NCBI GenBank assembly: GCA_963556255.1
Contig: OY744604.1
Location: 21,132,566-21,196,565 of the forward strand
Origin: Allolobophora icterica
Lineage: Eukaryota; Annelida; Clitellata; Crassiclitellata; Lumbricidae
Direction of reading: 5' to 3'
Length of the DNA stretch: 64,000 nucleotides
Both the position numbers and the translations under genes were made by a program. Under the pieces are notes generated by a model. That model saw only the letters and a list, made by a program, of their open reading frames with translations. It was not told where the DNA came from and did not search any database. Positions 1,288 to 60,173 of this stretch are shown here, piece after piece. Each line of letters starts with the position of its first letter. Position 1 is the first letter of the stretch.

Positions 1288-1301
1288 GATATTTAGGCCT
1301 A

Positions 1302-1849
1302 CAGTGATGGGCAATAGTTAACTAAAAAGTTCCTAACTTTTAGTTTAACTAAAAAAATTGAGTTAAGGAAGAAGTTTAACTTTAAAAAAATAGTTTAGTC
1401 AAAACCATAGTTTAACTAAAAAATTTTAGTTGCTAACTAAAAAGTTTAACTAAAAAAATCAGCAATATGCAACTATTTTTCCACAGTAAACATTGAACAC
1501 TGTCAGCAGAAAAACATTTTAACACTGCATGGTTTTAGCATTAACAGCCTGTGTTTTCAAATTCATACACTACTTACAGTACACATGTAACTGTATGCCA
1601 GAACAGTACACATTGCATAGTTTGAAGGTGAAATTGTCATTGATGCTTTGCATTATTACAGTTCACTTAACGTCTTTTATTGTGAAAATGTTTGTCGTAA
1701 AAAGTTGGAAAAAAGTTGGAAAAAGTTTAACTACTTTTTTAGTTTAGCTAATTAATTTCCAAAATCAGTTGGCAACTTTAGTCAAACTATTTTTTTAGTT
1801 GGAAAATAGTTTTACTTTAACTAAAAAAATAGCTTAGTGCCCATCACTG
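1302..1849. mobile_element. hAT-like non-autonomous element
   Basis: The terminal inverted repeat CAGTGATGGGCA is present at both ends. The interior is AT-rich with many copies of AGTTTAACTAAAAA. The 8-bp duplication gatattta lies at 1850-1857 on the right and 1288-1295 on the left. On the left it is separated from the inverted repeat by six extra bases, GGCCTA (1296-1301). There is no coding capacity. The 8-bp duplication and CAGTG ends fit hAT. Confidence 0.8.
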
Positions 1850-2201
1850 GATATTTACGCTATAGAAGATACATGTATCTGTAGATTATACTATATTGCA
1901 ACAGCTAAGTTACCATGACCTAAGCAGTTTTTATGAGTAAACTGTTAATCGTTTAATATATTTATATTGTAAGGTTTTAACTAAGAAGTGTAATTTCAGA
2001 TCAGCCATATAGTCAACATACAAAACAACTTAGAAGTATAATAATTAGTGACTACAAAACGTACAGATCTAGGTTGAAACTGCATGTATTAAAAACAGTT
2101 ATGCAATACTAGATGATCCACAAGGTTAAGGTAAATATAAAAACAAAAGACTGTTCAAAACCGAAAATACTCCAACAGAATTTATTTCTAAGTCAACCTC
2201 G

Positions 2202-2435
2202 TTAACAGCCAAGATATCGACTATTTAGATGAAAAACTAAAATTCGTCCATTGCTTAGTAGCGTTTTCCTCTCATCATAATCGTTGTCTACCACAAAAAG
2301 TCTGCCATTTGCTTCATCTAGGTGTATGCTCCACGGATCTCTTAGACCATGTTTCTCTTTCGACAGTAGTACTCGATTAAATTTCAATGATCGACCCAAC
2401 AGCAGAACCCTTCGATTTGCGTATTCAGCTATGAT
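2202..2435 (-). pseudogene. Decayed NHL beta-propeller fragment (TRIM-NHL relative)
   Basis: The reading frame matches the C-terminal blades of the NHL exons at 3955 and 28724. It has a blade core (AEYANRRVLLLGRSL) followed by a stretch parallel to LRRPSRILLDESDGRLFVV of gene 1. Homology stops abruptly at about 2436, where the dispersed repeat 2437-2690 begins, so the exon was cut by that insertion. It has no start or upstream blades. It could be the terminal exon of a lost third gene, but is most likely non-functional. Confidence 0.7.
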
Positions 2436-2436
2436 T

Positions 2437-2690
2437 ATTTAGCCAAGACTTTAGTCAGATAATTATATACCAGATCCAATGCCTTTAAAAAATACAGCCA
2501 TATGCATTTAAGTTTGACTTTTGCACAAAAGATTAAATTCATCATGAAATAAAGTAGCAAAAATTCACTCTTGAAACAGACGATAAAACAAGAAAGTTCG
2601 GACGCTGGCATGCTAAGCATAAGACAACAGAGAAATTGGAACTTATTGTGCACAATTTTTTACTCTCTCTGGAAACATCCTTGACTGCCT
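2437..2690. repeat. Dispersed repeat, copy 1
   Basis: Nearly identical to 19639-19886 over about 250 bp, beginning TTAGCCAAGACTTTAGTCAG in both. It interrupts an NHL fragment here and abuts a non-LTR reverse transcriptase fragment at the second site. No terminal inverted repeats were found, so it may be a SINE-like or truncated element. Confidence 0.85.
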
Positions 2691-2955
2691 TGCCTCCTAT
2701 AATATTCGCCTCGGTGTTTATTATAGCCAGAAATATTCAACTCCGACGCCTCGGCGTTTATTATAGCCAACGATTACGCCCCCATAGCTGCATGTTCGCG
2801 AAGACCAGGATTCCGCCATCTCCTAATAAGTTGCTTTCAAGATTTGCTTTATTGTCAGCAACAAGCAATCGACTGCTTGTCTCGTTCAGGCAGATACAGC
2901 GCAGATTTTTATGGCGCCCCCTTTCGCTCGGGACGAGTTCTTTTACGTAGGCCTA

Positions 2956-3110
2956 ATCAATGTTTCCGTTGAGCAGCAAAACTCTGGCGTTTCTTGTGTC
3001 GTTAACAATGATGTATCCATTTCATCGACGATCAGTTGCATTGGACCATAAAATCCAAAAATCTGCCAGAAAATTTTGACCCACTCACCAGATGACCAAC
3101 TCTGTCCTTT
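2956..3110 (-). pseudogene. Second decayed NHL blade fragment
   Basis: Minus-strand translation gives NGYIIVNDTRNARVLLLNGN, which lines up with NGFVMVADRFNSRVLLFD of gene 1. The preceding peptide LIVDE is in another frame, so there is a frameshift near 3019. Further upstream, a weak match to the preceding loop can be followed to about 3110. It covers the same blade as the fragment at 2202-2435, so the two come from different paralogues. Confidence 0.55.
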
Positions 3111-4840: not shown

Positions 4841-4914
4841 CTAATATTACTAGTTAAATTTTGGAAAAACTGAAGACTAAAGTATGTGACATCGACGATA
4901 ACCATGTTCATTCC

Positions 4915-9172: not shown

Positions 9173-10895
9173 GTACTCGGACATTTATAGAGCGTTTCTA
9201 GCGGGAAGGCCATTCAGAAGCGCTTCCACTATACGAGAAACTCCGAGAGAAAAAGCAAGATTTAAGAGAGGTAAAAGAGGAAGAAACGTTACCTAAGAGA
9301 ATAGAAGAACGGACGGACGGAGAAAGGTCATTCCGAAGAGCAGGGCCAATGGAAGCAAAAGATCTAGATTGAACCAGTGAAGCCCTGACACGGGAACGAG
9401 GAGGTCCAAACTATACCCCGTGATCGATCGAGTCGAACTGCTACAATCGACTTGGCTCAGCCGACGATCGACTCGATCGACTTTGTCGACTAGTCGACCT
9501 CTCGTCGACTCGATCGACTTGGCAAATAAACGATCGACTTGATCGACTTTGTCGAATTGGACTGTACCATGTTCCTGGTGGGAGCCATGGCGCCAAGTTT
9601 TGGCTCTGTAAAGCCGAGGCAGAAGCATGCCAACACAACCTTTGGCTGGCGCTTTGTATTTGATATGCTTGCTAAAGTAGTTATTGACTTACTATGCTAT
9701 AGACGTGTTTCATTTCACGAATATGTAGGCCATGTATAATAAACTTTTCCACTGATTGTAAAATACTGACAAAATATTCTTATTGGTTATATCGGATATA
9801 ATGTAGGGCCTATAATTCTATCCATCTTTGGTCTGCAGCCTACTTCCCTGAAGTTAGCTCACGCAACTTTTAAACACTTTCCGAAACACTGCTCTTGGCC
9901 AAAATCGAAGCATTCAGTCCCGTCCTAACATACAGACATTCGAACGTTTTGAGATCGTCGTTATAACTGACTACAGAGCTGAAATTTTCTTAAACTTGCG
10001 CATTTTAACGCATCGTAATCCTTCCATTTTCACCGTAAAACTTTGAAAAAATCTGCAGCTTCCACTATACGATGTCACCAAAAGGCTTATAATTTGCACT
10101 GAACTTCAAATCAAGTTAATTACGGTAGTTGTGCTTTTACAAAGCATTAGGGCCTACGTGAAGTGGGTCATTTTGTGAAGTAGCCGCAAAAAATATTAAG
10201 AAAATATTTCATAGTCGAGTCGAGTCGAGGAACAACGATCGACTCGACTTGTTAAAACATATGATCGACTCGACTTGCAAGTCGATCGAGTCGAAGATTT
10301 TTCGACCGATTCGACTTGGCAGAGTTTCGATCGACTTGATCGACTGACTCGATCGATCACGGGGTATAGTCCAAACGGTCAGAGGAACGAAGAGGACGGA
10401 GAGAAGCAGCAGGGTAAAGGCGATGAATTAAATCATATAAATATTTTGGAGCAAAACCAAGTTGAGCCTCAGAGACGAAGATGTCATCGAGGACCTTGAA
10501 TTGGATGCGGGTAGAAAGCGGGAGCCAGTGGAGTTCTTCTGCCATAAAGGTGGTGATATCAGAGAATCGAGGAAGACGGGCAATTAATCTAGCAGCAGCA
10601 TTGAATAGGAGCAAGACGGACCTTGGGAAGACCAATGCGGAGGTAATTACAGTAGTCAAGTCTAGAGCAGACAAATGCATGGACAATCGAAGTGCAAATC
10701 GGAGATGCGACAGAGCGACGGATAGCCCTAAAGCGCATTAGGTTAAAGTAGGAAGTGCGGGTCAGTTTGGAAATATGTTAAGTAAAGGTGAGAGGATTGT
10801 CAAGGGTCACTCCTAGATCGCGAACACTAGACGAGAAAGAGATAAGCGGAAAAAAGCACATGATAGACTAAGCACCACCAGAGTCTCAGACTCTC
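9173..10895 (-). mobile_element. CR1/L2-like 3' fragment, split by a DNA element
   Basis: Minus-strand frames read VHAFVCSRLDYCN-like, RLIARLPRFSDITTFM and EELHWLPLSTRIQFKVL. This is the reverse transcriptase C-terminus of the same family as 32025-34015 and 34972-35384. The 3' end (TTTATA-AGCG-TTCTAGCGGG in plus orientation) lies at about 9175. The 957-bp element 9412-10368 sits inside it. The related copy at 35200 is uninterrupted at that point, which confirms the insertion. Confidence 0.88.
9412..10368. mobile_element. GTCGA-rich DNA element, copy 1
   Basis: 957 bp with inverted ends TATACCCCGTGATCGATCGA. It is flanked by the 8-bp duplication gtccaaac (9404-9411, 10369-10376). The empty site is preserved in the homologous copy near 35200 (gaggtccaaacggtcag). 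Both ends hold about 150 bp of overlapping palindromic GTCGA/TCGATCGA motifs. No convincing ORF. Other copies are at 39174-41665 and 46275-46440. The 8-bp duplication fits hAT, but the TATACCCC end is not the usual CAGNG. Confidence 0.9.
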
Positions 10896-10973: not shown

Positions 10974-12161
10974 TGCACTATATGTATTCCTCCTCGGTTT
11001 CTTATTACTTAATATCTTCAGATTATCAGTCATCAGCATGGCCAACATTAGAGTTCAGTGTAGTACTCAGCTCTAACAATACTCTGTCATCGACTGATCA
11101 GTCCGGCAAGGTTTAGCATTCGCTGGAATTAAGTTCTGCCAAGAATGGCCAGTCAACTAGGCCTAACCTAAACACACATCAACGTCGTCTGCGCTATGCA
11201 GGTGAAACTGATCTCAAGTGGCTTATAAGGCTTACTGCGGCAATAGTTGTTAAGTAGGTAATTTTACTGGCAGGGGTACATATTCAATGCTGGATTTTCA
11301 AGTTTTGTTACTGTAGCGGGACTAGGGTTATCAAATGCTTTGTTTATCTTATTTAATGTTAATATAGGAACTTATTACCAGCTAGTTAATTGCAAGCGGC
11401 GTTAGGTTCAATGAGGAAGCGGCGCTATAATAATTTTATAAGCTATATATGAATTTAAACGTGAGATCAAAACGTGGGTAACTGGCTAACTGTGCAACAG
11501 GAAATATGTGGACCGGATACTATGGTAATGGGTAACGTCAGTCAATGAAATCGCTTGGAACGACATCTTTGAAAAAGGAGTTGGATAGTCGCAAGAAACG
11601 GTCGTAGTGAGAGGCTATTTTGAGACGTAAGAAATGTGGGTAACTTCTGTATCCTCATATTCAAACATCTAAAGTACTTTAACTCGAACACTTGGTTAAA
11701 GAGAAAGTTTGAAAACATCTGAAAGCGAAATTAGTAAGACTGACGGTGACATTAAACAAATTCCGTGATTTCCATCGGTCATATCTGATCGATGAAAGTG
11801 ATTTCGATAACGTGGGTAAACTTTGCATTGATTTTCACGAGCGATTTGAAATTTGGAGTTGTCTACTGTCGTACTCTGGTCTACTACGGTAATCATTCAG
11901 GCAGTCGAAATGGACTTATCTCATTCGATAACTACGAAACCCTCGAAAGCCTAAACTTATGAACGGTTTGCACTTCACGTCAAAGGAACCATTAGGCCTA
12001 CTTGCCATAAACCTAAACACATTTCAAGGAGGATCCGAATTCCTTTCTACAATTTTCTCTAAGTTTGTCTCGCGATAATAAAGCTTACTTACTGACTAAA
12101 TGGCATCTTTGATCAAGCGGTAGATTGTTTGATGAAGCTTGACTCAAACCGTCTGATACAC
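10974..12161. other. Non-coding stretch, with inverted arm at 11088-11125
   Basis: Apart from the inverted copy of the gene 1 upstream sequence, I recognise nothing. The short frames have no family features. TAGGCCTA occurs at 11158 and 11993. Confidence 0.5.
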
Positions 12162-12169
12162 CTTCCTTC

Positions 12170-13160
12170 CAGTGTGATTCTCGTTAACGTTAACGATAAC
12201 GAAAATGTTCGTTAACGAACAAAAACTGATTTCGTTAACGATAACTATAATAACTGTAACTAAAAATATCATTAACTATAACTATAACGATAACGAAAAT
12301 AACACTAACGAAAACTCATCGCTATTTTCGTTAATGAAATAAAAAAGTGCAATATCGATAAACATGGCGAATTTAATCATGCGCGATATTTTATTCGTTT
12401 TAACTATCCTGTTCATTGTTCCGAGATAAAAAGAGAAAATGTGGTTCATCTCCTTCCGAATATTCTGGCTTCTTTTCGAAAATCTAATATTTCGAGTTTC
12501 TTTTTGATGGAAAGATAATTTTTTCTTTCGATTGTTAATTTTAGAGTGAGAAACTTGTTTTGATTTTAATATTATATGTTTAAAGGAATATTATAAAAAA
12601 AAGTTATCATGTTCAAATTAGAAATGTTCATAATAAAAATCAAATTGAATACACATTTAAAAGAAAACGAGATTGTATTTTTAATGGGAAAAATCCATTA
12701 AATATCTGTGACAGACAGTGATTACACAAGTAGGCCTACTGTTGTTATTAAGTATTAAATTTAAATCTGAATAACAACGTTTTGTTTTTTGGCAATTTCA
12801 TGTTTTTGCATGTTAGAGAAATATTCTGAGGGTGGGGTAATTTTCTTTGACATAATTTTATTAGGGGGTCCTTGAATGTTTGACAGTTGATGACAAGGGG
12901 AGGAGATCAAACACTGCCTAAAATTTGCTCACATAATTAATCGATGACCCCATATATGTGGACCAGGAGGAGTGCCATTGGGGTCACTTGTAATTATGCA
13001 CTAACTAAATTAACTAAAATAAAAGTCCAGTAACTATAACTATAACTATAACTAAAAAATAATACTAACTATAATTGTAACTATAACTAAAATTAAAAAA
13101 AACCCATTAACTATAACTGTAACTATAACTAAAATAAAATCTGTAAGGAGAATTACACTG
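12170..13160. mobile_element. hAT-like non-autonomous element with AACTATAACTA repeats
   Basis: The perfect 8-bp duplication cttccttc lies at 12162-12169 and 13161-13168. The inverted ends are CAGTGTGATTCTC and CAGTGTAATTCTC. The left subterminal region has repeated GTTAACGATAACG and both sides have AACTATAACTA. It has no ORF. A truncated relative lies at 18419-18605. Confidence 0.9.
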
Positions 13161-13168: not shown

Positions 13169-13829
13169 GTGTTGGATATACTTGTAACACCTACTGTATG
13201 TCTTAGTCTCATTAAAATGATTTCGGGCATAGCACATAGCTGCTGTTCCTCCTAAATGAACCTCGACAAGATGAACGGTGGCGACTGCTTTCTGTCGTTT
13301 GAAACTGGCTCGCTTTCCTCCATGGCCGACTTCAGTATACAAATGAACACTATATTAATTTTATTAATAAAATTATTATATCAAATTTTATTATTAATGG
13401 TTTCATTGATATAATATAATTATTTAATTGTCTTTGACTGTCGTTTGGTTGCGTGTCATTACTGGTTGTCCTCTGAGGCCAGTTTCAATAGGTTTGCTGA
13501 TATTTGCGATACTATTTTACCTTTAGGCCTATTCATCATCAGACTCTGAAAGAGGCGACGGATGTCGACATTTTTTAAATTATATGAACATAACATATTG
13601 ATAATTAAGTAACTTCAGTGTAGTTTGAGCTTACCTCTGAACATCTGACAACTGCTAAGCAAAATGACGACGCAGTGTGGACGTTGGGTCTAAGTTAGAT
13701 CTCATGCAAGTTAGCCTGCTAGTGATCTAGGCCTACTAAATAGTTTGTCAGCCTGAGTGTTTACTATTTACATAGTTGATAAGACTAATTAGTCAGCAGA
13801 GACATTTGCTGGAGTAGACAACAGTGGAT
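13169..13829. other. Non-coding stretch
   Basis: AT-rich, with TAGGCCTA at 13524 and 13728. No gene or classified repeat seen. Confidence 0.5.
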
Positions 13830-15546: not shown

Positions 15547-16734
15547 TAATTTTTATGATGTTAGATGTTTGTCGTAAAATAATTATAATCGACATAAATT
15601 TGATACAGAGCACTTTAAAGAACACGGAAGTTGACAAATGAAAAAAGCATTCGCAACCATCGTCGCCATAATTATGGCTGGCTTCAGAAACCGATGCTGA
15701 TGATGATAATAATGATGATGATGATGATAATAATTTCAAAAATTCTCACCGCAGCTTAAGAGGATCTACACGGACAAAGGCTGTGTTTCTATAGCTGGGA
15801 CAATGCTATAATTTACGATAATAATCATGGGCGCCGACTCTGCGAGGCCCGTGAGTGCCCAGCACTACCAGAAGTAGGCCATGCGAGGCCCACCTATGCC
15901 TGAGCACCACCAGAAATCAGCCCGCAAAGAGCGCTTTTAAGAGATTATTTTTCTATTGGCATTAGCCTACATAATTTATCTATAAAAAGATCAAAAATTT
16001 TTTTCGCGCGTAATTGCTTTCATTTCTTTGGGTACTCACACCTTTTGGGTCAGCTCGATGCAGATAAGCTACCTACCTGGTTTCAATATAACCAAAGATA
16101 TTTTGCTTCGTTTTGACTTAGGCGCTATCACCGGGAAAATGCAGAGGACAAGGGTATGACGGCACCTCTGCCATGTCCGGAGGGATAACTGCATTACAGT
16201 CGAATTAAGGAAGTTTCTGTGTAAACTATACAAATCACTTACTTAATTTAGGCATTCATTAAGCATAATCTAGAGTTCCAGAATGCAGAGACACGATGAA
16301 TATAGACAAAGCTTTAATTAAAATTGCCAGACACTCTCCTCAAAAATGGCATGTTTTGACACAATACAGTTTGAGAGAGAAGCCATTTAGTTGTGAATCA
16401 TGTAGGCCTAACATTATAAAGACATCATAATTATAAAACAAAGGAATAAAGATTTCCTGGACGAGAGAAGCCGCGGTATTTGTAATTTGACATTAATTTG
16501 ACATTATAATTATAAAATAAAAGAACTGAGAATTGATCCTGATTTTTTGTAGCATTTTAACATTGCAACAAAAAAAGGTCAAAAATTTTTTTCCCGACGC
16601 CCGAAAATTGCTTTCACTCTCTTTAAGCACTCACACTATTTTGGTCAACTCGGTGCCTATGATAATAATGCTGTAATTGCCAATGTATTTTCACTCCTTT
16701 GCTTACACATACTGACCCGAACAATAGTGATAAT
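15547..16734. repeat. Non-coding stretch with an 85-bp direct repeat pair
   Basis: 15978-16063 and 16571-16653 share TCAAAAATTTTTTTC, AATTGCTTTCA and CACTCACAC-like blocks in the same order. The pair could be two ends or copies of one degenerate element. A GAT microsatellite is at 15697-15735. No gene recognised. Confidence 0.6.
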
Positions 16735-23545: not shown

Positions 23546-24300
23546 CAACCGTGCCAATCAACGTCCCATGCAAACTAAAATTCGTAAGCTTCCAACTCAA
23601 ACTTTCAGTGCACATGTCTTTGAAAACTTAAAAGTTTTAATTTAGCGTACAAGTCTTCATCGCTCGCGTCTTTTTAACTTACATGTTGAAATATTACTGC
23701 GCATATCAGCATTTCACACATCCTAGGAATCTTAGAGGCCTAGTTTAGCATAGGGCCTACGAAACATCAAACTATGCACTTTTGCAAACAAAGAGTTGCA
23801 ATTTAACCATACAAATCATCGTTCCATGCATATTATAAATCTAAAAGTTGTTACTTGAGCATCAGAACATCCAACTCCATCCGCCATTTTACCATAGAAA
23901 TCATTTTCCCATGCATTTTAACCATCCAAAAACGCAATTTTGCTGTAGAAACCTCACCACGTGCATCCAACATGTCTTTGCGGCCAAGAAAATTATAAAT
24001 TTTACTGCTCGATCTTTCACTGCTTTGCCTATGCAATCTAAAAGTGTTAGGTTTAGCGAACAGGCCTTCATCGCGCGCGTCATGGTAACCGACGTGTTGA
24101 AATTTCACTGTATTAGTCAGAATTTCACACACTTTATGAATCTAAATGTCATAATTTCAGTGTAAACATCACAAACTATGCGCTGTTACATGCTAAGAAT
24201 TGCAATTTAACCGTGCAAATCGTCGTCCCATGCAGTTTAAGAATCTAAAATTTGTAATTTGCATTCAGAACACCGACTCTATCTGCAATTGCAAACTAAA
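23546..24300. repeat. Diverged satellite-like flank
   Basis: Motifs of the satellite (AATCATCGTTCCATGCAT, ATTTCACACA, AAAGTTGTAATTT-like) recur at irregular spacing. This is consistent with old units at the array edge. The short frames here have no family features. Confidence 0.65.
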
Positions 24301-26239: not shown

Positions 26240-26830
26240 GTACCAGGCGATTCGTTGGTATACAGTTACCGTCAACTGCAGTTATCATCAGAACCACCAC
26301 AACCGCAAACCACATTTGGCATATGCCTAGTAGCAATTGCCACTACAACGATCACCACACAAGCCCACCAGCTGCTCTATGGGCAAAAAATTAGATCCAT
26401 AAGAGCTCTGCATATGAAAATATGGGTTTTTTATAGGCTCGACGTGGACTTGCTGGTACTGTGAATATTCACCAGCATTTACGGAATCTGAATATAAGGT
26501 GGCTTCATAACAATAACCAACTATTCATTTCGATAGGCCTGCTAGATAGAACACCATACAAAAAACCTTTGACATATAACAAGAAAAGAAGGTGTACGAA
26601 ATATATCTTACACAACTTAGTGTTCTATAGAATCAAACGATTCGTGAGGTAAAGTTAATCATTCAGAGATATTGGAAACGAGAAAACTGGACTGCGTTGA
26701 ATATTATGATCTACCAGTAAATTGTTAAGTAGGCCTAGACGATAAGTCACGCGATAGGCCTACATCGTCACCAGAATCTTAAAGGCTCGTTTCCTAAAAA
26801 GGCTTAATCCGCTTCAATAATATGGAACGG
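26240..26830. repeat. Segmental duplication downstream of TRIM gene 2
   Basis: Partner of 3340-3905. It carries extra TAGGCCTA octamers at 26730 and 26755; the latter is absent from the partner (GCGATACATCGTC near 3850). Confidence 0.7.
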
Positions 26831-35384: not shown

Positions 35385-35991
35385 TTGCCTTAACAAACGA
35401 CTGCAGGGTTACAGAGAAAACCTTCGTTTGTTTCTATTTTGAGTAGACTAAAGTTGTACAAGACTAAGAAATGAAAAGGCTTCAATTTTAGAAAAAATAA
35501 TACAATCCAACTTTAATGTTTAAATTTCGTACCTTTGTTTCTGGATCATATTGAAAGTGTAGATTCAACAAGATTTATTTTACAAAACCCAGCATGTTTT
35601 CGAGGCGCTATGCTAAGTGTCTTGATTACAAGAAAACATAAATTCATATATACATAGGCCTACATAGAGTCTGCTAGATTGCTAGAAACCAATAATGTCC
35701 CATAGTAACCAGCAATGTACCTTTGCCCGCCCAAGGCCAAGCGATTTGAATGGATTTTCCTATTCATTTTGAAAACTTAATTTAGCGCTCCCTCAAGGTA
35801 CCTACTCAGAAGCGCTACTTTATCATTACTGTAGGAGGTAATTAAGTGCTCTAGGACAAGTGGGTCCCTCGATTTACTGTTCTAGGTATAAAAAAGAAAG
35901 CGCCGTCAGTCAGAGTGTAGTCGGGTTGGACGTCCATCAGTCGTAGCAGTCGAAATCCAGGAAGCAGAGAGAACAGTCAACCTAACTTCAG
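35385..35991. other. Non-coding stretch
   Basis: No gene or classified repeat. TAGGCCTA at 35655. Confidence 0.45.
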
Positions 35992-37069: not shown

Positions 37070-39000
37070 GGTGTCTAATGTACAAGGCATCAACCGATGG
37101 CACATCAAAACCAAGTCCTAATCAGGTTAATACCCAGAAGATTGGTCCGTAAGATAGAGAGGCAGCCTATAGCGGATGAGCAATTTGAAAGAAGTAAGTT
37201 TTAAGTTGAGAACGGAATTACACAAGCCACTGAGCAGAGCGCACAGACACAGGGAAAATCCACACGAAAAGTAGGTCCAGCAACCGAAAAAGCTCGTTCA
37301 CCAAGTACAGTTCTTGATTTAGGTGTGACCAGACAAAGATAATCCGATGACCTCGTTGGATAATGATAAGACTAGGGAATAAGAAGTGATTTTAAGTATT
37401 GTGGTTGGCCAGAGTTCACAGTTTTATAAACTATGAGCCTCAATTTGAAACAAATTTTTTTGCTGCTTTTTATGTACTCGACCCAATGCAAACATTTAAG
37501 CACAGATGTTAAATGTTTGTATTTGGACGTGTTAGTTAAGGCTCTAGCCAAAGAGTTTTGAACTCTCTGCAGCTTCAGCATGTTTAACCGATTGATACAA
37601 GGAACAAGCGAGTTACAGTAATCTAGGCGACTGGAAACCAATGAATTTGCCCAGTGCATTTTTCAATCCGGAACGCGCCGTCCGGCACCTTTTTTCAGCT
37701 ACTGAAAAATAATTTTTTTATTTTAATAATAAAAACAATAATTTAGATATTTTAATTTAATTTCAGTGTTGTGAACTGTTTTCAGTATTTATTGAGACCC
37801 CTCCCAACCTCCAATCTCGTTTTCCTCGGGATTTTAGCCCTTCTATAATTGTTCAGTTGCGGAACCTATTGTTCAGTTCCAGAACCTTTTTTTCTAGAAA
37901 CAGCACTAAATTTGCCACATATATCTTTGCGGACATGGGCACATGACGTATAATTCTGCGTATGTCACAACATTAATGAACTGATATAATGACGCACAAA
38001 TACTCTTTACATGGTCAGTGAGACACATGTTACAATTGAAAATAGCGTATAAGCTACGCGCAGCGTCTGCCAGCTCTGCAATTGAGTCACGCAGTTTCAA
38101 TGACTTAAGCCGATCAAATTTGTTAAGTTGCTGTGGAGAAACCAGTCTTTGATGGGTTAAGGAGGAGTTTATTGGCTGCCATCCAAGAATGTCAAATAGG
38201 CCTATAGCAGAAAAGAGCTGCACAGATGAGTCACATGACAGACTGTCAAAAGAAATGTAGATTGAAGTATTGTCAGCAGCGAATAATTACCCAGTAATGT
38301 TCCTAGTGGTGTGGTGTAAAATGGAAACAAAAACAAGCACAGAACTTTATGAAACACCGCCTGCCAACAAAGTACTAGATGAATAATTACGATTTAACTA
38401 CGCTGACCGAGTGCGTGGACTAAATAAAGTACTAAACCAATTTCTAATTGATGCAGGACCAGAGATCCCAAGCAAGTGCTTGAGACGATGAAGAAAAAGA
38501 GAATTATTCACAGTAGCAAAAGCCGCAAACAGGTTAAGAAGAACTACTGCTGCAACGTTACCATCGTCCATTGAGCATAATTATGATGTCATAATGAGCA
38601 AGAAGAAGTGCAGATTCTGTGGAGTGAAACTTGCGATATTCATGCTGAAAAGAGGAGATTAGTGAGATTAGTGAGTCTGATTATTAGTGATTTTGCAGAC
38701 GACTCAAGAATTTCAAGGATTTTAGATATAAAATTCAAGCTTGAGATTGGCCTGTATTTTGACAGATCATCACCGTTTCTTAAGCAGCGGATGAACTATG
38801 GCATGAGCAAAAGCAGATGGGAAGAATCCATAGTTTAATGAGAAATTGATAATGGGAAGGATCGATAGTACAATGAGAAATTGATAATCGATGTAATGGT
38901 TGGACCCAGAACACAAAAGCACTCTTTAAGATTACTAAAGTTACTGCGTTGTCATTTCAAGCCTTCTGACAGAACATGGTCAACATCCGCGGACATTTAA
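37070..39000 (-). mobile_element. CR1/L2-like retrotransposon, decayed
   Basis: Minus-strand frames give HSTESALL-like at about 38600. They continue with VKSICASLYQFINVV at 38000, SSRLDYCNSLV at 37600 and LTSVLKCLHWVEYIKSSKKI at 37480. Many stops occur. The MITE 37652-37908 splits the thumb region. Confidence 0.82.
37652..37908. mobile_element. hAT-like MITE, CAGTGCTTTTTTC family, copy 1
   Basis: The perfect duplication aatttgcc lies at 37644-37651 and 37909-37916. Ends CAGTGCATTTTTC and TAGTGCTGTTTCT. GGAACG/CCGGCACC palindromic stretches are shared with 52160-52406 and 52802-53065. Confidence 0.9.
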
Positions 39001-39912: not shown

Positions 39913-41495
39913 TAGTGGTTAAATTGCTCATCCAGAGGTGGTGGGTCTCTAAATATTTGCAAATCCAAAAAACCAACTGCTAATCGTAAACTAAAACAGG
40001 GACGTCATTTAAGCTTTTCCAGAGGGGAGGCAAAAAAGAATTTCCACGCTGACGCGCGAAAAATTTTTCACCTTTTTCGTGTTTCTTTTTAAATGCTTTA
40101 TATTTAGTCTACATGTGGAAAACTGTAAGCCAGTGCTGCAAATGATTCTCTTTTTTTCTTGTTTACCCCTTTCTTCTTCCTCCTTTTCTTTTTTACATTA
40201 TTTTTTCCCCCAAAATGGGGGGGAAATGCCCTCCATGCCCCCAAATGACGTCCCTGAATTACAACATGCATGAAACACGACACATCACCGATAATTGAAA
40301 GCAAAAACATTAACAATTAAGATTGAAGCATAATATTACTTTACATAACATTTTACAGAAGATTAGGCTTTGATCGCCATGTCAATGCAATAACTTACAA
40401 AGCACATAATGAACAAATACCAAAAATTAATATGCAGACTACTTTCAAATTGAAGAGCCGCGTAAGTAAAGCAGTCTGACTATAGCCTTAGATCATAACA
40501 GATGTAAACCCAGTGAAAAGCTGAAAATTAAGCAGGAGTTTCAATACTGTCATTCTGTCAATGCCACAATATGCAGATTTAGAAACATTTCCGTACTGCC
40601 CTCTGGATGCTTCTGTGGCTGTGGACGTTTTCGGTGCTTTGCACTTGCCTAAATCTGTTTCACGCTAACCACTACACTATCTATCCTGCTAGGGCAGAAA
40701 TTTGGTTCGAGGCTTCTGCTCCACTTGTGCCCCCTAGCCAACTCAGCTATAATGAGTACACCGACAGTCCACTGTGGGTGGGAAGACGAGACGGCGACGG
40801 AGAGGACTCGCCACCCGCCCTCACATGCCAAGGCTAAGAAAATGAAGTCGCTATCACTTCATACCCGTGGTTGTCTGATCAGGGCTAGATTAATAGCTTA
40901 ATTTAAGGGACTGCAAGAAAATCTGTTGCAGCATGACGACCCTTAACAATCCATCCACGTACGATAGCTTTCTTTGCACGCTGGCCAACTTTCTTTTCAA
41001 CATTAGGCTATCTGCAGACTGCATGCGCGATAATTATAACTAATCAGATGACGTGCTATTCCAGATTTTCAAACGATTCCAGCTAAGCCTTCCGAAATTC
41101 CGCAAACGAGTTATTAATGAAGCAAACTACTGTGTTATCGCTCGGATGTATACGCCCAAATCTACTTCTGCTGCCACAGCCTTGGGTTACTACTTACTAC
41201 CCTTCCGCAGCGATTATAAAACAGCAGGCGATTTAAGTAAACACATAGGCCTAAGTAGTTTTCTATGATGCTAGTGAATATTGAACCGCACTGTGAGGCT
41301 GACGAATGCTAATCTGATCTTAGGTGGTGGATCTCCCTATTGAGGTGATGGGTCTCCCTGTTGAGGTGATGGGTCCCCCTTTTTAGGTGGCGGATCTCAT
41401 AATTTGGGTGGTGGGTCTCACAATTCAGGTGGCGGATCTCAAATCAGAGGTGCCGGATCTCATATCCGGCGGGATCCGGCTGAATTTAACCACTG
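39913..41495. mobile_element. hAT-like element nested in GTCGA copy 2
   Basis: The perfect 8-bp duplication cccctcgc lies at 39905-39912 and 41496-41503. Ends TAGTGGTTAAATT and CAGTGGTTAAATT. The right subterminal region has about eight GGTGG-GGATCTC-type units of about 25 bp (41320-41460). No transposase ORF recognised. Confidence 0.9.
39997..40256. mobile_element. hAT-like MITE, innermost of the nest
   Basis: 260 bp with 14-bp perfect inverted ends CAGGGACGTCATTT. Flanks aactaaaa and aattacaa agree at 6 of 8 bases, so the duplication is decayed. Confidence 0.75.
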
Positions 41496-42484: not shown

Positions 42485-42545
42485 AATAAATAGGCCTAGT
42501 TAATTGCATATATATATATGCTATTAACTAGGCCTATTTATTATT
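42485..42545. repeat. Hairpin palindrome with paired TAGGCCTA
   Basis: AATAAATAGGCCTAGTTAAT and ATTAACTAGGCCTATTTATT are inverted around an AT-rich loop. An (AT)n run follows. Each arm holds one TAGGCCTA. Confidence 0.9.
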
Positions 42546-42559
42546 TATTTAGGCTTATT

Positions 42560-42614
<55 letters not shown>

Positions 42615-43125
42615 CTTATCCGAAGTACTGTAGACCTAGTTAATAAAACTGTCGCATCTCGAGTAAACTGCAGAGAACTTTATCGTGAAGGATATTTGTC
42701 GTTAGTCGACAGAACATGACAAATTATGACAAATTGATTCTGTATCAACAAATACATTTTTACAACGTTTCAATTCAACCTAAAAGGATTAGACAAGGAT
42801 ACAGGCTAAGTGTTTAAGGAGCTGAGCCATAAAACAAACTAATTACTAAGTCTGTTGCTCTATTGTTAAAGTAGTGCATAAGTCATCTGCGCAATTTCCT
42901 GAAACATCAGGCCTACTACGTTACGCTGTGAATCTGTTAAACTTAATAAGAAAGTAGGCCTACTGATTGTCTAAAATTCTATGCCACTATAACTTTATAA
43001 GCCAACCTATGTACATAGGTTCTGTGAAGACTACGCACCCTCTATGGTAAAATCCTAGCTACGCCACTGAGACAGACATGCATACATGCATGCATGAATA
43101 CATACATACATACATATAAATATAC

Positions 43126-43557: not shown

Positions 43558-44185
43558 CTGAAAAAAGAGACCAGAGTTCTTGTGATTTACTAATGATCAT
43601 TTAATTTTCCGACTAATTTACAAATTAGGCTACAGTATATACGTCGCAGTATATGCGTCGTCCAATATCACTCTAATCACAACAATGACTTGTAGTACAC
43701 TGGTCTAGCGTTCAAAGAATCGTCCATTAGCGCACGGACCGAGCCATAATCTTGTCATTATCGATAAGATCACTCCCCAGTTACATTGGGCCCATAATTA
43801 TAGCATACACAGCCTATATGTTTGTGGTCAAAATAATATGGGTCCAAGGTTAGCCCAGCGAAAGCCTGCAGAAAGAAGTGTTGTAGGCCAATTTAGTAGG
43901 CCTACATTCAGGAACGACGATGGTCTGCGTCATACCAATTTATAAATTTACTACGACAAATGGAACTACAATAGCCTTTATAACATTAGCATTTTTATTA
44001 TGATTAATTAAATTTGTAACACGCGCAAGGTCATTCCGAAATGTGAATCTGAGGAGCGGATAGTCAGTCGCCAGGAGAAGATTCAGTCAGATATCCAAGT
44101 GCTTAAAAGCCAAGGAGAAATAGAGAAATAGCATAAAGTAAGTTTTAAGAAATTTAACTGACGATTTACAAAGGAAGGCAACTAC

Positions 44186-48954: not shown

Positions 48955-49744
48955 CCTGACAGTACAATAAAGGCTTTTTGTTACGTCATTTCAACTATGA
49001 AACACGATGAAACACGTTTTTTTGTTAACAAATTTAAATTTTAAGAATAAAGTCCCTGTTTACGTCACTTTTATTATGAAACACGTCTACTGAAGGCATA
49101 TAAGTTTTAATTCTGAAACCAAAGGTCGGTTGTTATGTCACTTCAATTATGAAACACACTATTTAGTAATTTTTAGATTTAGGCCTAGAGAATAAGAGCA
49201 TTTGTTACGTCGCTTCAATTATGAAGTAGTGTATTGTTATTATAAGTTTACATTCAAAGAATAAAGGCCTTTATTACGTCACTTCAGCGTCACTTCATTT
49301 CAATTGTGAAATACGTCTATAGTTTGTAATTTTAGATTTAAAGAATAAAGGCCATTCTTACGTCACTTTAGTTATGAATAAGTCTATTGTTATTAGGTTT
49401 AAATCTAGAGAATAAAAACCTATTGTTACGTCACTTCAGTTATGATCCACACACGTCTCTTCTATAATGAAACACGTCTATTGTTAGTAATTTTGAATTA
49501 TTATTTTATTTTCATTATTATATAATTATTGTTTTCATTGTTATTATATTTATTATTACGCTTATTGTCGTTATTATATTTATTCTTTTGTTATTATTAC
49601 CATCAGCATCGTCATCATCATCATTATTATTCGGCATTGCGCATAAATGGCGCCAAATATAGATTTATTGGGCGCCATTATAATCATTTAACGGCCTTGA
49701 AGAGGAAACGATGCGAAATTTGGTAGACCAAAGTTACGCCTCTG
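48955..49744. mobile_element. TGACGTAA-minisatellite DNA element, copy a (inverted)
   Basis: The right end is the reverse complement of CAGAGGCGTAACTTTGGTCT. The interior is a mirrored version of copy b (51549 on): the GCGCC-flanked segment, ATT/ATC simple repeats, then about seven units with TTACGTCACTTCAATTATGA. The left end was not defined. Confidence 0.75.
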
Positions 49745-50865
49745 ACCTGACCGGAACTCAAGTGCTGTGTGACACATTATAGAATGACGCCATTTAATTA
49801 TGTAGGCCTACACTCTACAGTATGCAGTCGTTGGGGCCCCCACAGTTTTACTGAACAGGGCCACCACATTTGTTAATCCGGCCCTGCCCCTCCCGTCCTC
49901 TCCGCTTCCCTACCCTTACCACTCTTTTTCCCTCCTCTGCCCATCCCTGCTTTCCCGGTCCCGCCCTATCGCCACATTATTTACTGCCTTTCCATTTCCA
50001 AACCCTTCCCATCCCGTCCTCAGCCCCTTCCCTATAGTGAGTGGGGACTGTGGAGACGCTCGTAGGTGAGTTTTAGAACATTTTAAAGCCTACAAAAGCA
50101 GCATTTTGTAATGCCTAAATATGCTTTGAATTGTTCTGTAAAAGCGTGTCTGCAACTATGATCAAACCTGAAGCCGAAGCAAGTTTTTGAAGTAAACATT
50201 ACATTTGTTGCTTTTTTGCAGGACTCTAATTTTGTTGTTCAACTTGTTCTAGCTTCTAAGGTGAATCAGGCTAACACATTTCAGTTTATTACTAACAAAC
50301 ACTATTCAAGCTGTGTTACACAAAAGAATATAATGTAACAAAATAAAAAGTTAGTTCTTAATATTCGACAATAAAACACAAAAACGTAGTCGTTATATAG
50401 GTTGTCGATTCATCATGATCTTGTCCTGTAGTCGACTAAGTCTTCTAATCCTATCTTATTTAAAGTTATTTCTTAAATTTAATGTGTAATAATTATGATT
50501 TAAAAAACAGTTAGCTAATCCTTTAGTTATGTTCGATTACTGGAACCTACGAAATAAAGCAAAATGTCGATTTGGAATTGTATAGGCTAGTCTTTAAATG
50601 TAACCCTAAGTAACCCTAGAATTCGTTCAGAGGTGACTCAATAATATTATTTAGACCAGACGCTTGGAGAAGAAGTCAGCCAAGGTAATCGTTATCGTAA
50701 TCGTAATCTCCAAACTTTCTAAAGCGCCACTCGACGGGCACGCGCAGGGCATCAGCCTATTCTCCAGCGCTACATCAAATCAGAAGAGGTTTTCCAGAGA
50801 GTGGTCCAAAAGAGGTCCGAATCCGGTTCCAGAGGGTCAGACCAAGACAGGAAATAAAGCATCTG
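49745..50865. other. Non-coding stretch
   Basis: C-rich tract at 49880-50030 and AT-rich beyond. TAGGCCTA at 49803. The 50664-50885 frame has no family features. Confidence 0.4.
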
Positions 50866-51759: not shown

Positions 51760-52159
51760 AACAATAAAAATAAATATAATAGACCCTCAATATTGATAAT
51801 AAACATAGTAATAAGCATAATAACAATAACAATAATAATTATATGATAATAATGCCAATAATAATATTAAAAAAATAATAATAATTTAAAATAACTAGCA
51901 GTTGACGGTTTCATCATTGAAGAGGCGTGTTTCGATTATAATTGAAGTGACGTAACAACAGACCTTAATTCTCTGAATTTAAACTTAATAACATAAACGT
52001 TTTCATAATTGAAGTGACATAACAAAGGTCTTTATTGTCTAAATCTAAAGCTTCTAATTATATACGTGTTTTTCTTAATCGAAATGACGTAGGCCTACTT
52101 TTCATAATTAAGGTAAAGTAACCAAGCCTTTATTATCTAAATCCGAGATTAAAAATTAC

Positions 52160-55461: not shown

Positions 55462-56724
55462 AGACAATTTCCTGCAACACGGGACGAAAGAATGGAGCTT
55501 GCGTTTTGGTAGAAGCTGCTGGAGAGAAAAGTGCTCTACTTGGCGTGCAGGCTACAAAATTCTTTTGGAGGAAGCTGTAATGATCTCCCAAACCACACAA
55601 TGATTTCCAGCTACACAACATGCTATAAGATGTTACAGTGTAGAGAAGAATCTATTCAGATTATATAATGTAGGATAGTAGAGCTACATAAATGTAACTT
55701 AATTTAAATGCCAGCAGCTAAGCCAGCATTGTAGGGATTAATTAATATTAGATAGAGGGGTTCATCATATCTACGCAAAGGACAGCAGACGATGTGGACT
55801 CACCTCATTGGTCAGGACGAACAGCTGATCAAAACCGTTATGGCGAAGCGGCTGACGACTCGGTAACCAAGCAACCGTGGTGACGTGGCGTGGAAATGCG
55901 GCAGTTCGATTTTTGATTTCAACTGAACAAGACGTTCTAGAAATCTTGAGTGGATCGACTCGGTGGATGTTGGACTAAGTCGATGAGAGGGCATCGTTAG
56001 TCAGTATGATCGGTTTTGCGAAACGATCGATACAGTTGAGTTTATAAGTCGAGACGTTGGACAGCGAGGATCGAATAATTCGAGTGAAACGCTCTCGTAA
56101 CAAACCGATGCGAAGCGTGACTTTCCATCATAGGAAGTCGACATTTGCGAAGCGATCTTGTCAACGGACTTAAGGAGTTATTCCGCGAGTGAAGTGTACG
56201 TTACTCTGGAGTAGTAAAGCGCACACTCGGGTTGTAACGACGGTCTCTTTGGGAGAGACATCACGCTACGAGAAGTCACGAGAACGGTGGATAGTCGAGC
56301 TTCGACGAGGGAGAAACAAGGCGATTTGCGAACGGAGCCGCGAAATCATCAGATGAACAAACGGATGAAAGACAGCTTTTCCACGAGGAACAAACTGTGA
56401 GAACATTCCGTGCTAAAGGGTCTTACTGGGAGGTAGCATTAGGCAATAAAATCTAGATAGCAAAGATGCTGGCTAGGTAGGGAGTAAGGCAAAGTAGACA
56501 TAGGATAACTAGACATTGAACTGTTACATGCTTTAACTTTGATATACATTATATTCATATTCATTTAAATGCATACACAGGTGTTCTCTGTTCATTTCCC
56601 TAGTCAAATAGATAGGCCTATGCATTTCCTTGTCCAGTAAAGACAAGATGAAACAGAACTAAAGTAGTCGTGGGTGTAGAACATAACACTAAGCACTCTT
56701 AGTATAGGGTGGCGCTACAGAAGC
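55462..56724. other. Non-coding stretch, CpG-richer 55780-56420
   Basis: No gene recognised. The 55780-56420 part is rich in CG and GTCGA/GCGA motifs, unlike its AT-rich neighbours. It may be an LTR or 5' region of an unrecognised element. Confidence 0.4.
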
Positions 56725-57341: not shown

Positions 57342-57589
57342 CTATAAACTAGTTGAATGCGCCTGTCCATTATACTACTGCAGCCAATGCATTCTAATGA
57401 CTGATCAAATCATTATTGGAAGACTTTTTATTTACATGTATATGATTGTACAAAATTAGCAAACCTGTCAAGTGGATTGAGCATGCCCTAAATATTGACA
57501 AATAGTTAAGAAATTTAATACCAATTAGTTTCTTCAAAGGGAGAACCTATTTGAAGGGTGGGAGAGTGCGATTTTGAAAGTTGAATAAT

Positions 57590-58090
57590 AAGGACCACCC
57601 AAACAGAGATGCAACTAAAGTTTCTGTGGAGTAGTGTTTAGTGAAGCCAGATTAGTGGGAGTTAGGATGTGAATCAGAAGAGAGGTAGTCGTTTAGCCGA
57701 GCAAGGACAATAATTCGTTCAGTTAACTTAGATAGAGGAGAAAGATTTGAGATGGGACGGTAGTTAGATAGGTTTTCCTTGTCAAGATTTACTTTTTGAG
57801 AAGGGAGTGACTAGAGAGTGTTTAAGTGCAATTGGATAGTTGCCGGTAGAGAGTGAGAGATTGATAATTTTGGTGATTAAAGGAGCGACGACAGAGGCAC
57901 AGTCTTTTAGAAGAGAGGTGGGGATAGGATCAAGTTCGCACTGCTTGTTGGGAAGAGAGTTTAGGAGGAGTGACACTTCTGCTTCGGACGCGGGAGAGAG
58001 AATTGGGAGCGATAACTGATAGGCAATCGGAGTAGGGTAGAGAGAATGGGATGAATCAGTGCTGGAGGAACCAATGGGAGTGTGTGCTTA
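57590..58090 (-). mobile_element. CR1/L2-like retrotransposon, reverse transcriptase N-terminal portion
   Basis: LLNSLPNKQCELDPIPTSLL and LITKIINLSLSTGNYP, followed by frames with NYRPISNLSPLSKL and HYSTETL. These are the start of the reverse transcriptase domain. The continuation lies 3.1 kb away at 54470 after inserted sequences. Confidence 0.82.
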
Positions 58091-58249
58091 GAAGAGATTG
58101 AAATACTCTAGTACTCCTTACACGATATCTTAATTCTCATGTCGAAGTAAGACGAGGCATGCCTCGACTTGCCTCGTCTTGCCTCATACTGGCTACGGCC
58201 CTGTCCACAGCCTCGGCCATGTTCGCTTTAAGGAGATTGTAGCCAGATC

Positions 58250-58560
58250 AGCCAGGTTTCAGTTTCACGACTTAGTGTCTATGGAGGACGTACAGATGAT
58301 TTCGGGCAGGAGTCAGCACCTCCCTTCACCAGTAAAAACGCCACTTATTCGGTAAGTGGATAGATTAAAATTGAAGTCACCACTGAAGAAAATATACATA
58401 CATTGAGCTTCTTAAGCTCTTGTAATATGGTTATGGTGTTTATCTTAGTCTCATAAAATACGAATAAACCAAAGCTGTCCATGATCTGGAATTTCCCGCA
58501 AGCCAAAGCGTTGAAAAGTGCGCATTCTGGAAACTTCCTCGAGTCCCAATTGACTGTATT
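58250..58560 (-). mobile_element. Possible endonuclease-region fragment of the same retrotransposon
   Basis: A minus-strand frame gives YIFFSGDFNFNLSTYRISG, resembling the GDFN motif of apurinic-type endonucleases of non-LTR elements. An adjacent frame has ECALFNALACGKFQIMDSFG. Only the motif and its position support this. Confidence 0.55.
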
Positions 58561-58799
58561 GTCCAAAATTGTTCACGCTGGCTATGCATTTAGCAATAGG
58601 CATGCAGAACCCAACCAACCTTTTGACGATTCAGTGTGCCTTTCCTCTTCCAATAATTATGCACAAACTTCAGTCTGTTCTTAATGCTGCTCCCAGAGCC
58701 GTAGCAACAAAGAACGTGGTCCCCTTCGAACATACGTCCGGACCTCTAACAATGCGGAAACTGAAGTGCTGTAATATGTAGATTCAACACATCTTCAGC

Positions 58800-59930
58800 T
58801 GTAAAAAGAGGGCTCGAGTTATCACTGTGACACCCAGCTTATCTGCAGTACTCGATCGAACCAAACTGAGTGACAGAAGGCAACATTTGTATTAGTAACA
58901 GTTGCTCAAAGTCCTGGTCATAATGTCCAGGAGTTAAATATCAACTATTCATCAACCCACAGAGCTAGAGAGCACCATAGAGCTGAAATTGCTTCACATC
59001 TTAAAGAACAGTTTCAAGCAAATGTCTCTCTTGAGGTACACTGGGATGGTAAACTCCTGAGAGAAATTACTGGAAAGTTACTTGTACATCGATAGCCAGT
59101 AATAGTTTCGGGAGCTGGAGTGAACCAATTGCTTGGTGCTCCAAAGTTGACTTCCAGTAGCCTCAGCTGTAGCTCATTTGACAGAAAATTGGGACCTTGT
59201 CGATCGCACTAATTATATGTTTTTTTATACCACTTCGAGAATTCATTGAGCTTGTAATAATTTTTCCTGGAGGTGCACCATTCAGAATATCATTTTTTGG
59301 CTCCTGGAGCCATACCTCATGCCAGATGGATGTCAAAGGCATTGTACTCACTAAAGACATGGATGTTTCGTGGCAAATTTAAACTTGCCACTAACGAAAA
59401 GAATGGACTCCGGAACCGGAACATGTGCAGTGCGCATCTGCATTGTTCGCATCTAAGTCAAGGCCTGGTTCACGGCTCCAAATGCAGCTGCATTTTCAAA
59501 TCATGCTCTCCACTGCCTTCAGCTCTTGGACCAGGATGAAACAGTGAACACACTCATTGTCAAAGCCACGCGAAAGAAATTTGCTTATCACCTTTGGCGT
59601 CTCAGTGGCTTTGTCATTTTGATGCGACAGTACTGTTTAATCCAAACGAGCAATGGTAAAGGCAATTAATCAGAAGAACGGTATTGGAACGGTATAGAAG
59701 ATTCTGCAAAATGCGTCACAGTTGAAGCAAGGAAATGCCAAAACACGGAAATTGAGTACTTCGTGACAAAAGAAAATACGATGCATTTCTTCTGCCGGCT
59801 TGGCATTCCGGCTGGATTCACGAAATGTGACCCGGACTTAAGGCCACAGCGAGAGGATTATAAAAATGCCATCAAGACTGTTGAACATCTGAAGGTTGTC
59901 AACGACAATGCTGAGTAGTATTGAGGAGTA
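58800..59930 (+). pseudogene. Uncharacterised TE-like protein family, copy 2
   Basis: Plus-strand frames give SLSAVLDRTKLSDR, ELNINYSSTHRAREHHRAEI, LEVHWDGKLLREITGKLLV and VSGAGVNQLLGAPKL. They continue with ARWMSKALYSLKTWMFRGKF, KLATNEKNGLRNRN and finally KTVEHLKVVNDNAE. The order agrees with copy 1 where they overlap (VVND.AE). There are multiple frameshifts and stops and a missing middle. The function is unknown. Repetition and decay argue for a mobile element gene. Confidence 0.65.
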
Positions 59931-60173
59931 GGCCTAAAACAGCATTTTTACTAAGAAAGAAAATCAGAAACAGTATTTACTTCAATTCGTCCAGGAACAC
60001 TATAGAATGTTTCTAACTTGCAAAAAAGACTCGTTTACCGCCAGCTCATTGCCTAGGCAATTCATAGACAATTAGATAATAGGCACTCAGCACTGTAATC
60101 AAGCTTCTCAGGCTCTGTACAGATAATGACTGCTGAATGTTACCTGCTTGAAGCTTGCTAAAATATAGGCCTA

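What the first reader, a model, noticed from the sequence alone, without database searches (positions are those of the whole stretch)
1294..60173. TAGGCCTA octamers are 6-7 bp insertions at TA, with empty sites in the same window
Exact TAGGCCTA occurs about 23 times (for example 1294, 11158, 12731, 26755, 42491, 43897, 49180, 52090, 60166), and TAGGGCCTA three times. Base composition predicts fewer than one. In several cases a paralogous copy shows the state without it. 26755 GCGATAGGCCTACATCGTC matches 3850 GCGATACATCGTC. 43897 TTTAGTAGGCCTACATTC matches 6157 TTTAGTACACTATGG. 9804 AATGTAGGGCCTATAATTC matches the reverse of 39655 AATGTATAATTC. 10146 GCATTAGGGCCTACG matches the reverse of 39400 GCATTACG. 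49180 matches 49331 within a tandem array. At 1296-1301, GGCCTA separates a transposon end from its target duplication. Each is TA turned into TA-GGCC-TA or TA-GGGCC-TA. A process that repeatedly writes this short palindrome at TA sites is implied. I know of no description of it.
Basis: partly seen in the sequence, partly recalled or inferred. Interest (0 to 1): 0.88.

Follow-up and report, generated by a model that had tools for sequence, protein, structure and literature searches.

The report
Mass scars of pogo transposon excision
This 1.1-billion-base genome holds about 273,000 copies of the word TAGGCCTA; in several places a related copy without it shows it to be a short insertion at a TA, and the words are likely scars left when jumping genes ending in GGG cut themselves out, so they would record a recent storm of transposition.

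Summary
TAGGCCTA occurs 23 times in the window (about 0.6 expected) and 273,201 times in the 1.118 Gb genome. Clean 6-7 bp presence/absence at TA is confirmed, with polarity: GGCCTA lies between one target-site duplication of a hAT-type MITE and its terminal repeat, so it came later.

The process is not unknown. The genome carries intact, nearly identical pogo-type (DDE_1) transposon families. Three with firm ends, two with tentative ends and an old relative in this window (26831-28626) read TA|GGG...CCC|TA. Cutting two bases inside each end and rejoining gives TA-GG-CC-TA; three plus two gives TAGGGCCTA; two plus one gives TAGGCTA/TAGCCTA. All these words are enriched.

Two tests support this. 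Flanks of 51 transposon ends show the octamers' target preference (outward C after TA: 0.55 and 0.41; background 0.20). At one GTAC site of the MITE, 22 of 31 genome-wide insertions of 3-10 bp are GG/CC footprints, in copies that do not form a subfamily. A SINE site with poor context gave 0 of 68.

The mechanism is known for Tc1/mariner and pogo elements; the scale is the surprise: about 262,000 excess octamers against a few hundred detected transposase genes. Excision itself was not observed.

The parts
1294..1301 (.). octamer; GGCCTA 1296-1301 lies between the left TSD and the TIR of a hAT-type MITE (polarity case)
1288..1295 (+). left target-site duplication GATATTTA of the hAT-type MITE
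1302..1849 (+). hAT-type MITE (TIR CAGTGATGGGC), high-copy family whose best other copies are 95-96% identical
1850..1857 (+). right target-site duplication GATATTTA
2948..2955 (.). octamer TAGGCCTA
9804..9812 (.). nonamer TAGGGCCTA with clean empty site in a paralogue (reverse strand near 39655)
10148..10156 (.). nonamer TAGGGCCTA; paralogue lacks it but has a further adjacent indel
11158..11165 (.). octamer
11993..12000 (.). octamer
12731..12738 (.). octamer; a related stretch in L027 also has an octamer there
13524..13531 (.). octamer
13728..13735 (.). octamer
16403..16410 (.). octamer
23751..23759 (.). nonamer TAGGGCCTA; related repeats are too divergent there to judge
26730..26737 (.). 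octamer, 25 bp from the next; paralogue not clean here
26755..26762 (.). octamer with clean empty site in the paralogue near 3850
26831..28626 (+). old pogo-type element with its TA duplications: TA|GGGTGAACTCATATAAAGTCGGAC ... GTCCGACTTTGTATTAGTTCACCC|TA; decayed transposase remnants about 27545-28217 (named by eye; no Pfam match)
35655..35662 (.). octamer
38197..38204 (.). octamer
41246..41253 (.). octamer
42491..42498 (.). octamer in one arm of an inverted repeat
42529..42536 (.). octamer in the other arm of that inverted repeat
42955..42962 (.). octamer
43897..43904 (.). octamer; paralogue near 6157 lacks the 6 bp, right flank divergent
49180..49187 (.). octamer; clean empty sites in two related repeats, others differ
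49803..49810 (.). octamer
52090..52097 (.). octamer; aligned repeats do not show a clean empty site
56613..56620 (.). octamer
59929..59936 (.). octamer
60166..60173 (.). octamer

Best explanation
TAGGCCTA is most likely the excision footprint of pogo-type DNA transposons of this genome, whose ends read 5'-GGG and which sit between duplicated TAs. Such an element inserts at a TA and duplicates it (TA|GGG...CCC|TA; sequence shown). When it leaves, the transposase would cut about two bases inside each end, and end joining would seal TA-GG and CC-TA into TAGGCCTA (inferred). Joints of 3+2 bases would give TAGGGCCTA or TAGGCCCTA, and joints of 2+1 TAGGCTA or TAGCCTA (these words are enriched: shown). 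A few hundred very mobile elements, perhaps with non-autonomous relatives now mostly gone, would have left about 260,000 such scars within a short evolutionary time (inferred).
For: Insertion with polarity: hAT-type MITE case. Clean empty sites against controls. Predicted source found: PF03184 search of the genome, 150 matches scored of 381 candidates, five of the 150 with a stop inside; one member of each of six groups was fetched and all six ORFs carry DDE_1. Ends: alpha, gamma and delta firm, beta and epsilon tentative, all TA|GGG; three gamma copies are 99.97% identical to each other's reference over about 3.06 kb and two delta copies 99.45%, their alignments ending at these boundaries with different flanks; the alpha end occurs 126 times; 18 of 18 fetched ends of the window family read TAGGG. 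Footprint words in a 260 kb sample, observed/expected: GGCC 56/2.5, GGC 27/10.5, GCC 19/10.9, GGGCC 5/0.4, GGCCC 2/0.5, while GC is 45/46.5. Same target preference: outward +1 C 0.55 at 51 element ends, 0.41 at 110 octamer flanks, 0.20 at all TA; ends vs background p = 1.7e-9, octamers vs background p = 1.9e-7, ends vs octamers p = 0.21. One GTAC site in the MITE: 31 insertions of 3-10 bp, of which GGCCTA 10, GCCTA 6, GGCTA 4, GGCCCTA 1, GGCCAA 1, against 784 empty copies; 19 of the 20 filled copies fetched have an empty copy as nearest neighbour.
Against: No excision was observed, and I found no locus with the element in one copy and the octamer in another (none was searched for systematically). 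Octamers outnumber detected transposase genes several hundredfold (262,500 excess octamers, 381 candidates), which ordinary cut-and-paste does not predict. At a SINE site (GTA|GGG) 0 of 68 insertions were GGCCTA; its context is poor (octamer at 1 of 898 GTAG against 12 of 688 GTAC), but the number of empty SINE copies was not measured. Ends are tentative for beta (another TA-flanked pair scored one higher) and epsilon (an inner pair tied), and unresolved for the 919-aa family. TA beside the ends was a condition of my searches; for alpha, gamma, delta and the window family divergent flanks of further copies confirm the boundary, though 5 of 18 window-family ends have one or two extra bases near TA|GGG.
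Confidence: 0.85

Rival explanations
1. A version of the best explanation: the scars are from excision of GGG-ended elements, but mostly of a once huge population of non-autonomous copies (MITEs) that was swept out in one burst, not of a few elements hopping for long.
For: Little decay of the octamers (one-mismatch neighbours 71 observed, 63 expected) fits a short burst; scars far outnumber elements.
Against: Sweeping out nearly all of some 260,000 copies would be unusual; the 260 kb sample shows only one element with the narrow end motif searched, the old one in the window (the motif does not cover the gamma or epsilon ends), and no excess of TAGGG (252 vs 257).
Confidence: 0.3
2. The scars belong to another TA-inserting family with GG ends that I did not identify; the pogo-type families share the ends by chance.
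For: Not all transposases of the genome were surveyed; only DDE_1 was searched.
Against: The resolved DDE_1 families have GGG ends, are young, and share the octamers' target preference.
Confidence: 0.06
3. A process without a transposon (repair or polymerase) writes the palindrome at TA.
For: Scars are very many and uniform; detected elements are few.
Against: It would not predict GGG-ended TA elements, the 3- and 5-nt length variants that fit GGG ends, or the shared target preference.
Confidence: 0.05
4. Chance, base composition, ordinary substitution or an assembly artefact.
For: None found.
Against: About 25-fold genome-wide excess over a Markov background, clean empty sites with controls, separate insertions at one site in many copies.
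Confidence: 0.01

Closest known systems
Tc1/mariner excision footprints (Tc1, Mos1, Sleeping Beauty, ZB)
   Same: TA duplication kept, with a few bp between the TAs: 2-4 bp for Tc1/mariner in general, 0-3 bp for ZB (PMC7913693 passage; individual footprint sequences recalled).
   Different: Footprints recalled for these elements start with CA or similar; here GG/CC. They are known (recalled) from assays or few loci; here about 262,000 excess sites in one genome.
pogo superfamily transposons (Passer, Tigger and others)
   Same: DDE_1 transposase with psq/CENP-B type DNA-binding domain, short TIR, TA duplication; Passer leaves 0-4 bp footprints (PMC9976928 passage; PMC7386202 passages).
   Different: All ends read here begin GGG; long C-terminal extensions, in two families with PHD-finger matches below the curated cut-offs; the alpha open frame of 1149 aa exceeds the 300-977 aa given in PMC7386202.
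DNA transposon excision sites in rice (O. sativa against O. glaberrima)
   Same: Genome-scale study of excision scars (PMC4423477 passages).
   Different: There only 8 of 94 excisions were perfect and insertions outnumbered excisions; here one word dominates and vastly outnumbers the elements.

Membership tests
Tc1/mariner-pogo type excision footprint (the octamer) | gain of a short sequence at TA with TA duplicated | tested here: met
Tc1/mariner-pogo type excision footprint (the octamer) | core bases come from the two ends of an element with TA duplication, with small length variation | tested here: met
   TA|GGG...CCC|TA in alpha, gamma, delta and the window family, tentatively beta and epsilon; 3-, 4- and 5-nt cores enriched. 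That the bases derive from these ends is inferred from the match
Tc1/mariner-pogo type excision footprint (the octamer) | sites share the element's target preference | tested here: met
   (51 ends, 42 of them alpha)
Tc1/mariner-pogo type excision footprint (the octamer) | made by excision | not testable with these tools
   needs resequenced pedigrees or an excision assay
pogo superfamily (the source elements) | DDE_1 catalytic domain | tested here: met
   six of six ORFs, E 6e-18 to 4e-26
pogo superfamily (the source elements) | HTH_psq / CENP-B type DNA-binding domain | tested here: met
   HTH_psq over its cut-off in L105, L106, L108 and L110; HTH_Tnp_Tc5 over its cut-off in L105 and L108; L107 and L109 have matches only below the cut-offs
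pogo superfamily (the source elements) | short TIR with TA duplication | tested here: met
   alpha, gamma, delta; tentative for beta and epsilon, not resolved for L110
pogo superfamily (the source elements) | transposase of 300-977 aa | tested here: inconclusive
   stop-to-stop frames of 664-919 aa in five families, 1149 aa in alpha; range from PMC7386202
pogo superfamily (the source elements) | DDD/E triad spacing and phylogenetic place | not tested
   no tree or triad count was made
hAT-type MITE (window 1302-1849) | 8-bp target-site duplications | tested here: met
   window copy and 17 of 23 other copies exact; the rest have mismatched duplications or an end not found

The most novel reading that the evidence does not exclude
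A few hundred constantly hopping pogo-type transposons have written about 260,000 nearly identical scars into one genome, so that the lasting product of the family is its footprint and not its copies. The elements stay few and young because they nearly always leave again, and the dated scars can be read as a clock of transposition. Scars even lie inside the transposons' own genes as in-frame two-residue additions.
Probability: 0.4. Interest if true: 0.8.

Novelty: new variant of a known kind. Interest (0 to 1): 0.66.

Why it matters
Transposon activity is usually read from the copies that remain. Here the copies are few and the scars would tell the story: an exact, countable eight-letter mark for each excision, with a target preference. 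If the footprint reading holds, cut-and-paste elements can turn over at very high rates without growing in number, and a simple word count plus resequencing could measure germline excision rates. It also warns that an over-represented palindrome need not be a regulatory motif.

Tried and rejected
Parent element with a TIR beginning GGCC: none found in the window and no clear excess of TAGGCC half-sites (76 vs 67); this led to ends beginning GGG instead. The inverted repeat at 42455-42576 as a mini-element: left as a local inverted repeat that carries two octamers. TAGGGCCCC words at 8894, 13877 and 15508: no partner ends seen. SINE test site: 0 of 68, a negative result kept in the report. A second repeat site, TCACAGTA...CGCTAATC, did not complete and was given up for the MITE site. 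A second GTAC site of the MITE did not complete; a poor-context control site of the MITE was planned and not sent. Octamer triples in IMG/VR and GTDB contigs: 11 and 27 stretches; judged by octamer spacing and base composition they are mostly local repeats, with no octamer-rich animal-like DNA; their genes were not examined. Literature: TAGGCCTA in 182 papers, 40 listings seen, with transposon 24, 20 seen, palindromic octamers 26, 20 seen, footprint searches and pogo families, partly capped lists; nothing in the listings seen describes this, and passages of five papers were read. The organism was not identified; one protein search with the TRIM-type ORF gave 55 relatives, with no species shown. 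Pfam and PDB searches with fragments of the window element's broken transposase gave no informative match.
Full report
Observation. TAGGCCTA occurs 23 times in the window against a shuffle mean of 0.57, and TAGGGCCTA 3 times. The window is a stretch of contig C3 of an unnamed 1.118 Gb genome, which holds 273,201 octamers and 65,378 TAGGGCCTA on both strands. A Markov model from a 254 kb sample predicts about 10,700 and 3,900. In that sample (window plus 19 stretches of 10 kb, about 12 kb of it N) 48 octamers stand against 2.3 expected; 23 of the 48 are in the window, which is richer than the genome average (1 per 2.8 kb against 1 per 4.1 kb, p = 0.05).

Insertion and polarity. Self-alignment shows copies with and without the extra 6 or 7 bp. 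Under a flank filter a clean TA empty site is seen for 3 of 8 octamers, 1 of 1 nonamer and 1 of 6 heptamers, against 3 of 798 control words of the same lengths (p = 6e-8). The five octamers that are not clean align only to local repeat copies that carry the octamer too; of the other three, three are clean. The hAT-type MITE at 1302-1849 gives direction: its two 8-bp duplications GATATTTA are intact, and GGCCTA separates the left one from the terminal repeat. Of the 40 other family matches, 38 begin at query positions 40-45, where 43 is the first base of the terminal repeat; one begins at 35 and one at 51. 24 copies were aligned; 17 of the 23 others have exact 8-bp duplications; none of the 23 has an octamer inside the MITE, and one has an octamer in its flank.

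Age. The words one mismatch away from the octamer show 71 matches against 63 expected, and half-sites outside octamers 76 against 67. The excess of decayed octamers is therefore about 8, with a 95% upper limit of about 26 for 46 excess octamers. That puts mean divergence since origin near 2% and not above about 7% (inference).

Source. A search for TA-flanked inverted ends turned up an element in the window itself, 26831-28626, with ends TA|GGGTGAACT..., decayed reading frames and ten further loci in the genome. All 18 fetched ends of this family read TAGGG; 13 have TA directly before GGGTG, 5 have one or two extra bases there. A genome search for DDE_1 (PF03184) gave 150 scored matches of 381 candidates, five with a stop inside and many as groups with identical scores. 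I fetched one member of each of six groups. All encode DDE_1, four with HTH_psq over its cut-off. Ends: alpha GGGGGAAGTGGGGCAAAG, gamma GGGTCATGAGGGGCA and delta GGGGAG(A/G)GTGGGGCAAAACG are firm; beta GGG(C/T)AAAGT is tentative, since another TA-flanked pair scored 17 of 20 against its 16; epsilon GGGTAG... is tentative, since an inner pair tied; the 919-aa family gave none. TA was a condition of that search. For gamma and delta further copies, 99.97% and 99.45% identical, end at the same places with different flanks. The alpha end, searched with TA in the pattern, occurs 126 times, about 63 elements, and 40 of these ends have unlike flanks.

Fit of the footprint. From TA|GGG...CCC|TA, keeping two bases of each end gives TAGGCCTA, three plus two TAGGGCCTA or TAGGCCCTA, and two plus one TAGGCTA or TAGCCTA. 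In the 260 kb sample the counts over expectation are 56/2.5, 5/0.4 and 2/0.5, and 27/10.5 and 19/10.9, while TAGCTA is 45/46.5; the mirror word TACCGGTA is 4/1.6. Passages of two papers give 0-4 bp footprints for the pogo element Passer and 2-4 bp for Tc1/mariner.

Independent test 1, target preference. I fetched 40 of the 126 alpha ends (from the first listed, on C1-C5; two at the head of the list and two belonging to L106 were not fetched) and added 11 ends of L106, L107, L108 and L111-L113. Outward from the TA, the first base is C in 0.55 and G in 0.04 of 51 ends; octamers (110 flanks) have 0.41 and 0.12; all TA have 0.20 and 0.18. Ends differ from background at p = 1.7e-9, octamers at 1.9e-7, and ends do not differ from octamers (p = 0.21). 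The third base leans to T in both (0.41, 0.44, background 0.31; p = 0.05 and 0.006); positions 2, 4 and 5 show no clear signal. In the sample 12 of 688 GTAC sites carry an octamer, against 1 of 898 GTAG.

Independent test 2, all insertions at one site. At TTACAGTA|CACATGTAAC of the hAT MITE the genome holds 784 empty copies and 31 copies with 3-10 extra bases: GGCCTA 10, GCCTA 6, GGCTA 4, GGCCCTA 1, GGCCAA 1 (one step from GGCCTA), CCGGTA 1 and 8 others. I fetched the 20 copies with GGCCTA, GCCTA or GGCTA. For 19 of 20 the nearest relative among them and 18 empty copies is an empty copy, and GGCCTA copies are further from each other (mean 0.077) than from empty ones (0.054); two GGCTA copies are very divergent over the stretch compared. 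So these look like separate events and not one amplified copy; the empty set was drawn from the best matches and is therefore young. Against this stands the SINE site, where 0 of 68 insertions were GGCCTA; its GTAG context is poor, but its number of empty copies was not measured.

Clustering. Among the first 100 octamers of C1, 5 gaps are under 50 bp (0.69 expected), and 5 of 42 TAGGGCCTA lie within 20 bp of an octamer (0.24 expected). This fits local reinsertion or hot spots, which I cannot tell apart. Octamers also lie inside element bodies (alpha 2, gamma 4 plus one nonamer, delta 4, epsilon 1, beta 0). The six that fall in open frames encode RP or GL: five lie beyond the DDE_1 match, one near the N-terminus of L110.

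Reading. That tested octamers are insertions at TA, and that octamers share the target preference of GGG-ended pogo-type elements, is shown for the samples above. That excision made them, that the cut lies two bases inside, that the same holds for the whole genome, and that few elements made so many are inferences. As a rough scale (inference, assumed values), 200-400 elements excising at about 1e-4 to 1e-3 per generation for a few million generations would leave a few hundred thousand scars.

Limits. 

Noticed in passing
window 8365-8372: TACATGTA with a clean TA empty site in the paralogue aligned from 44156, inside the RING/B-box ORF 7529-8713; looks like a CA/TG footprint of a Tc1-like element. 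TACATGTA is mildly enriched in the sample (17 vs 5.7).
   Followed up: no
L105, L110: The beta and 919-aa pogo-type transposases have C-terminal PHD-finger matches, all below the curated cut-offs, perhaps a transposase fused to a chromatin reader.
   Followed up: no
window 27714-27877: A high-copy element of about 160 bp sits inside the old pogo-type element; 28 further places are listed as matching it alone.
   Followed up: no
L107, L108, L111-L113: Octamers inside the gamma and delta element bodies are shared by their nearly identical copies and denser than the genome average.
   Followed up: partly
G000:C2:22184450: TACCGGTA insertion at the MITE test site, perhaps a footprint of an element with CC ends.
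   Followed up: no
window 21548-23560: Tandem array of a 153-bp unit, about 13 copies.
   Followed up: no
window 3955-4962, 7529-8713, 28724-29623, 44166-45317: Paralogous ORFs: two that pair with each other with RING/B-box domains (7529-8713 scanned) and two related to each other with an NHL repeat match (28724-29623 scanned).
   Followed up: no
window 42455-42576: Inverted repeat with an octamer in each arm and a TA-rich centre.
   Followed up: partly
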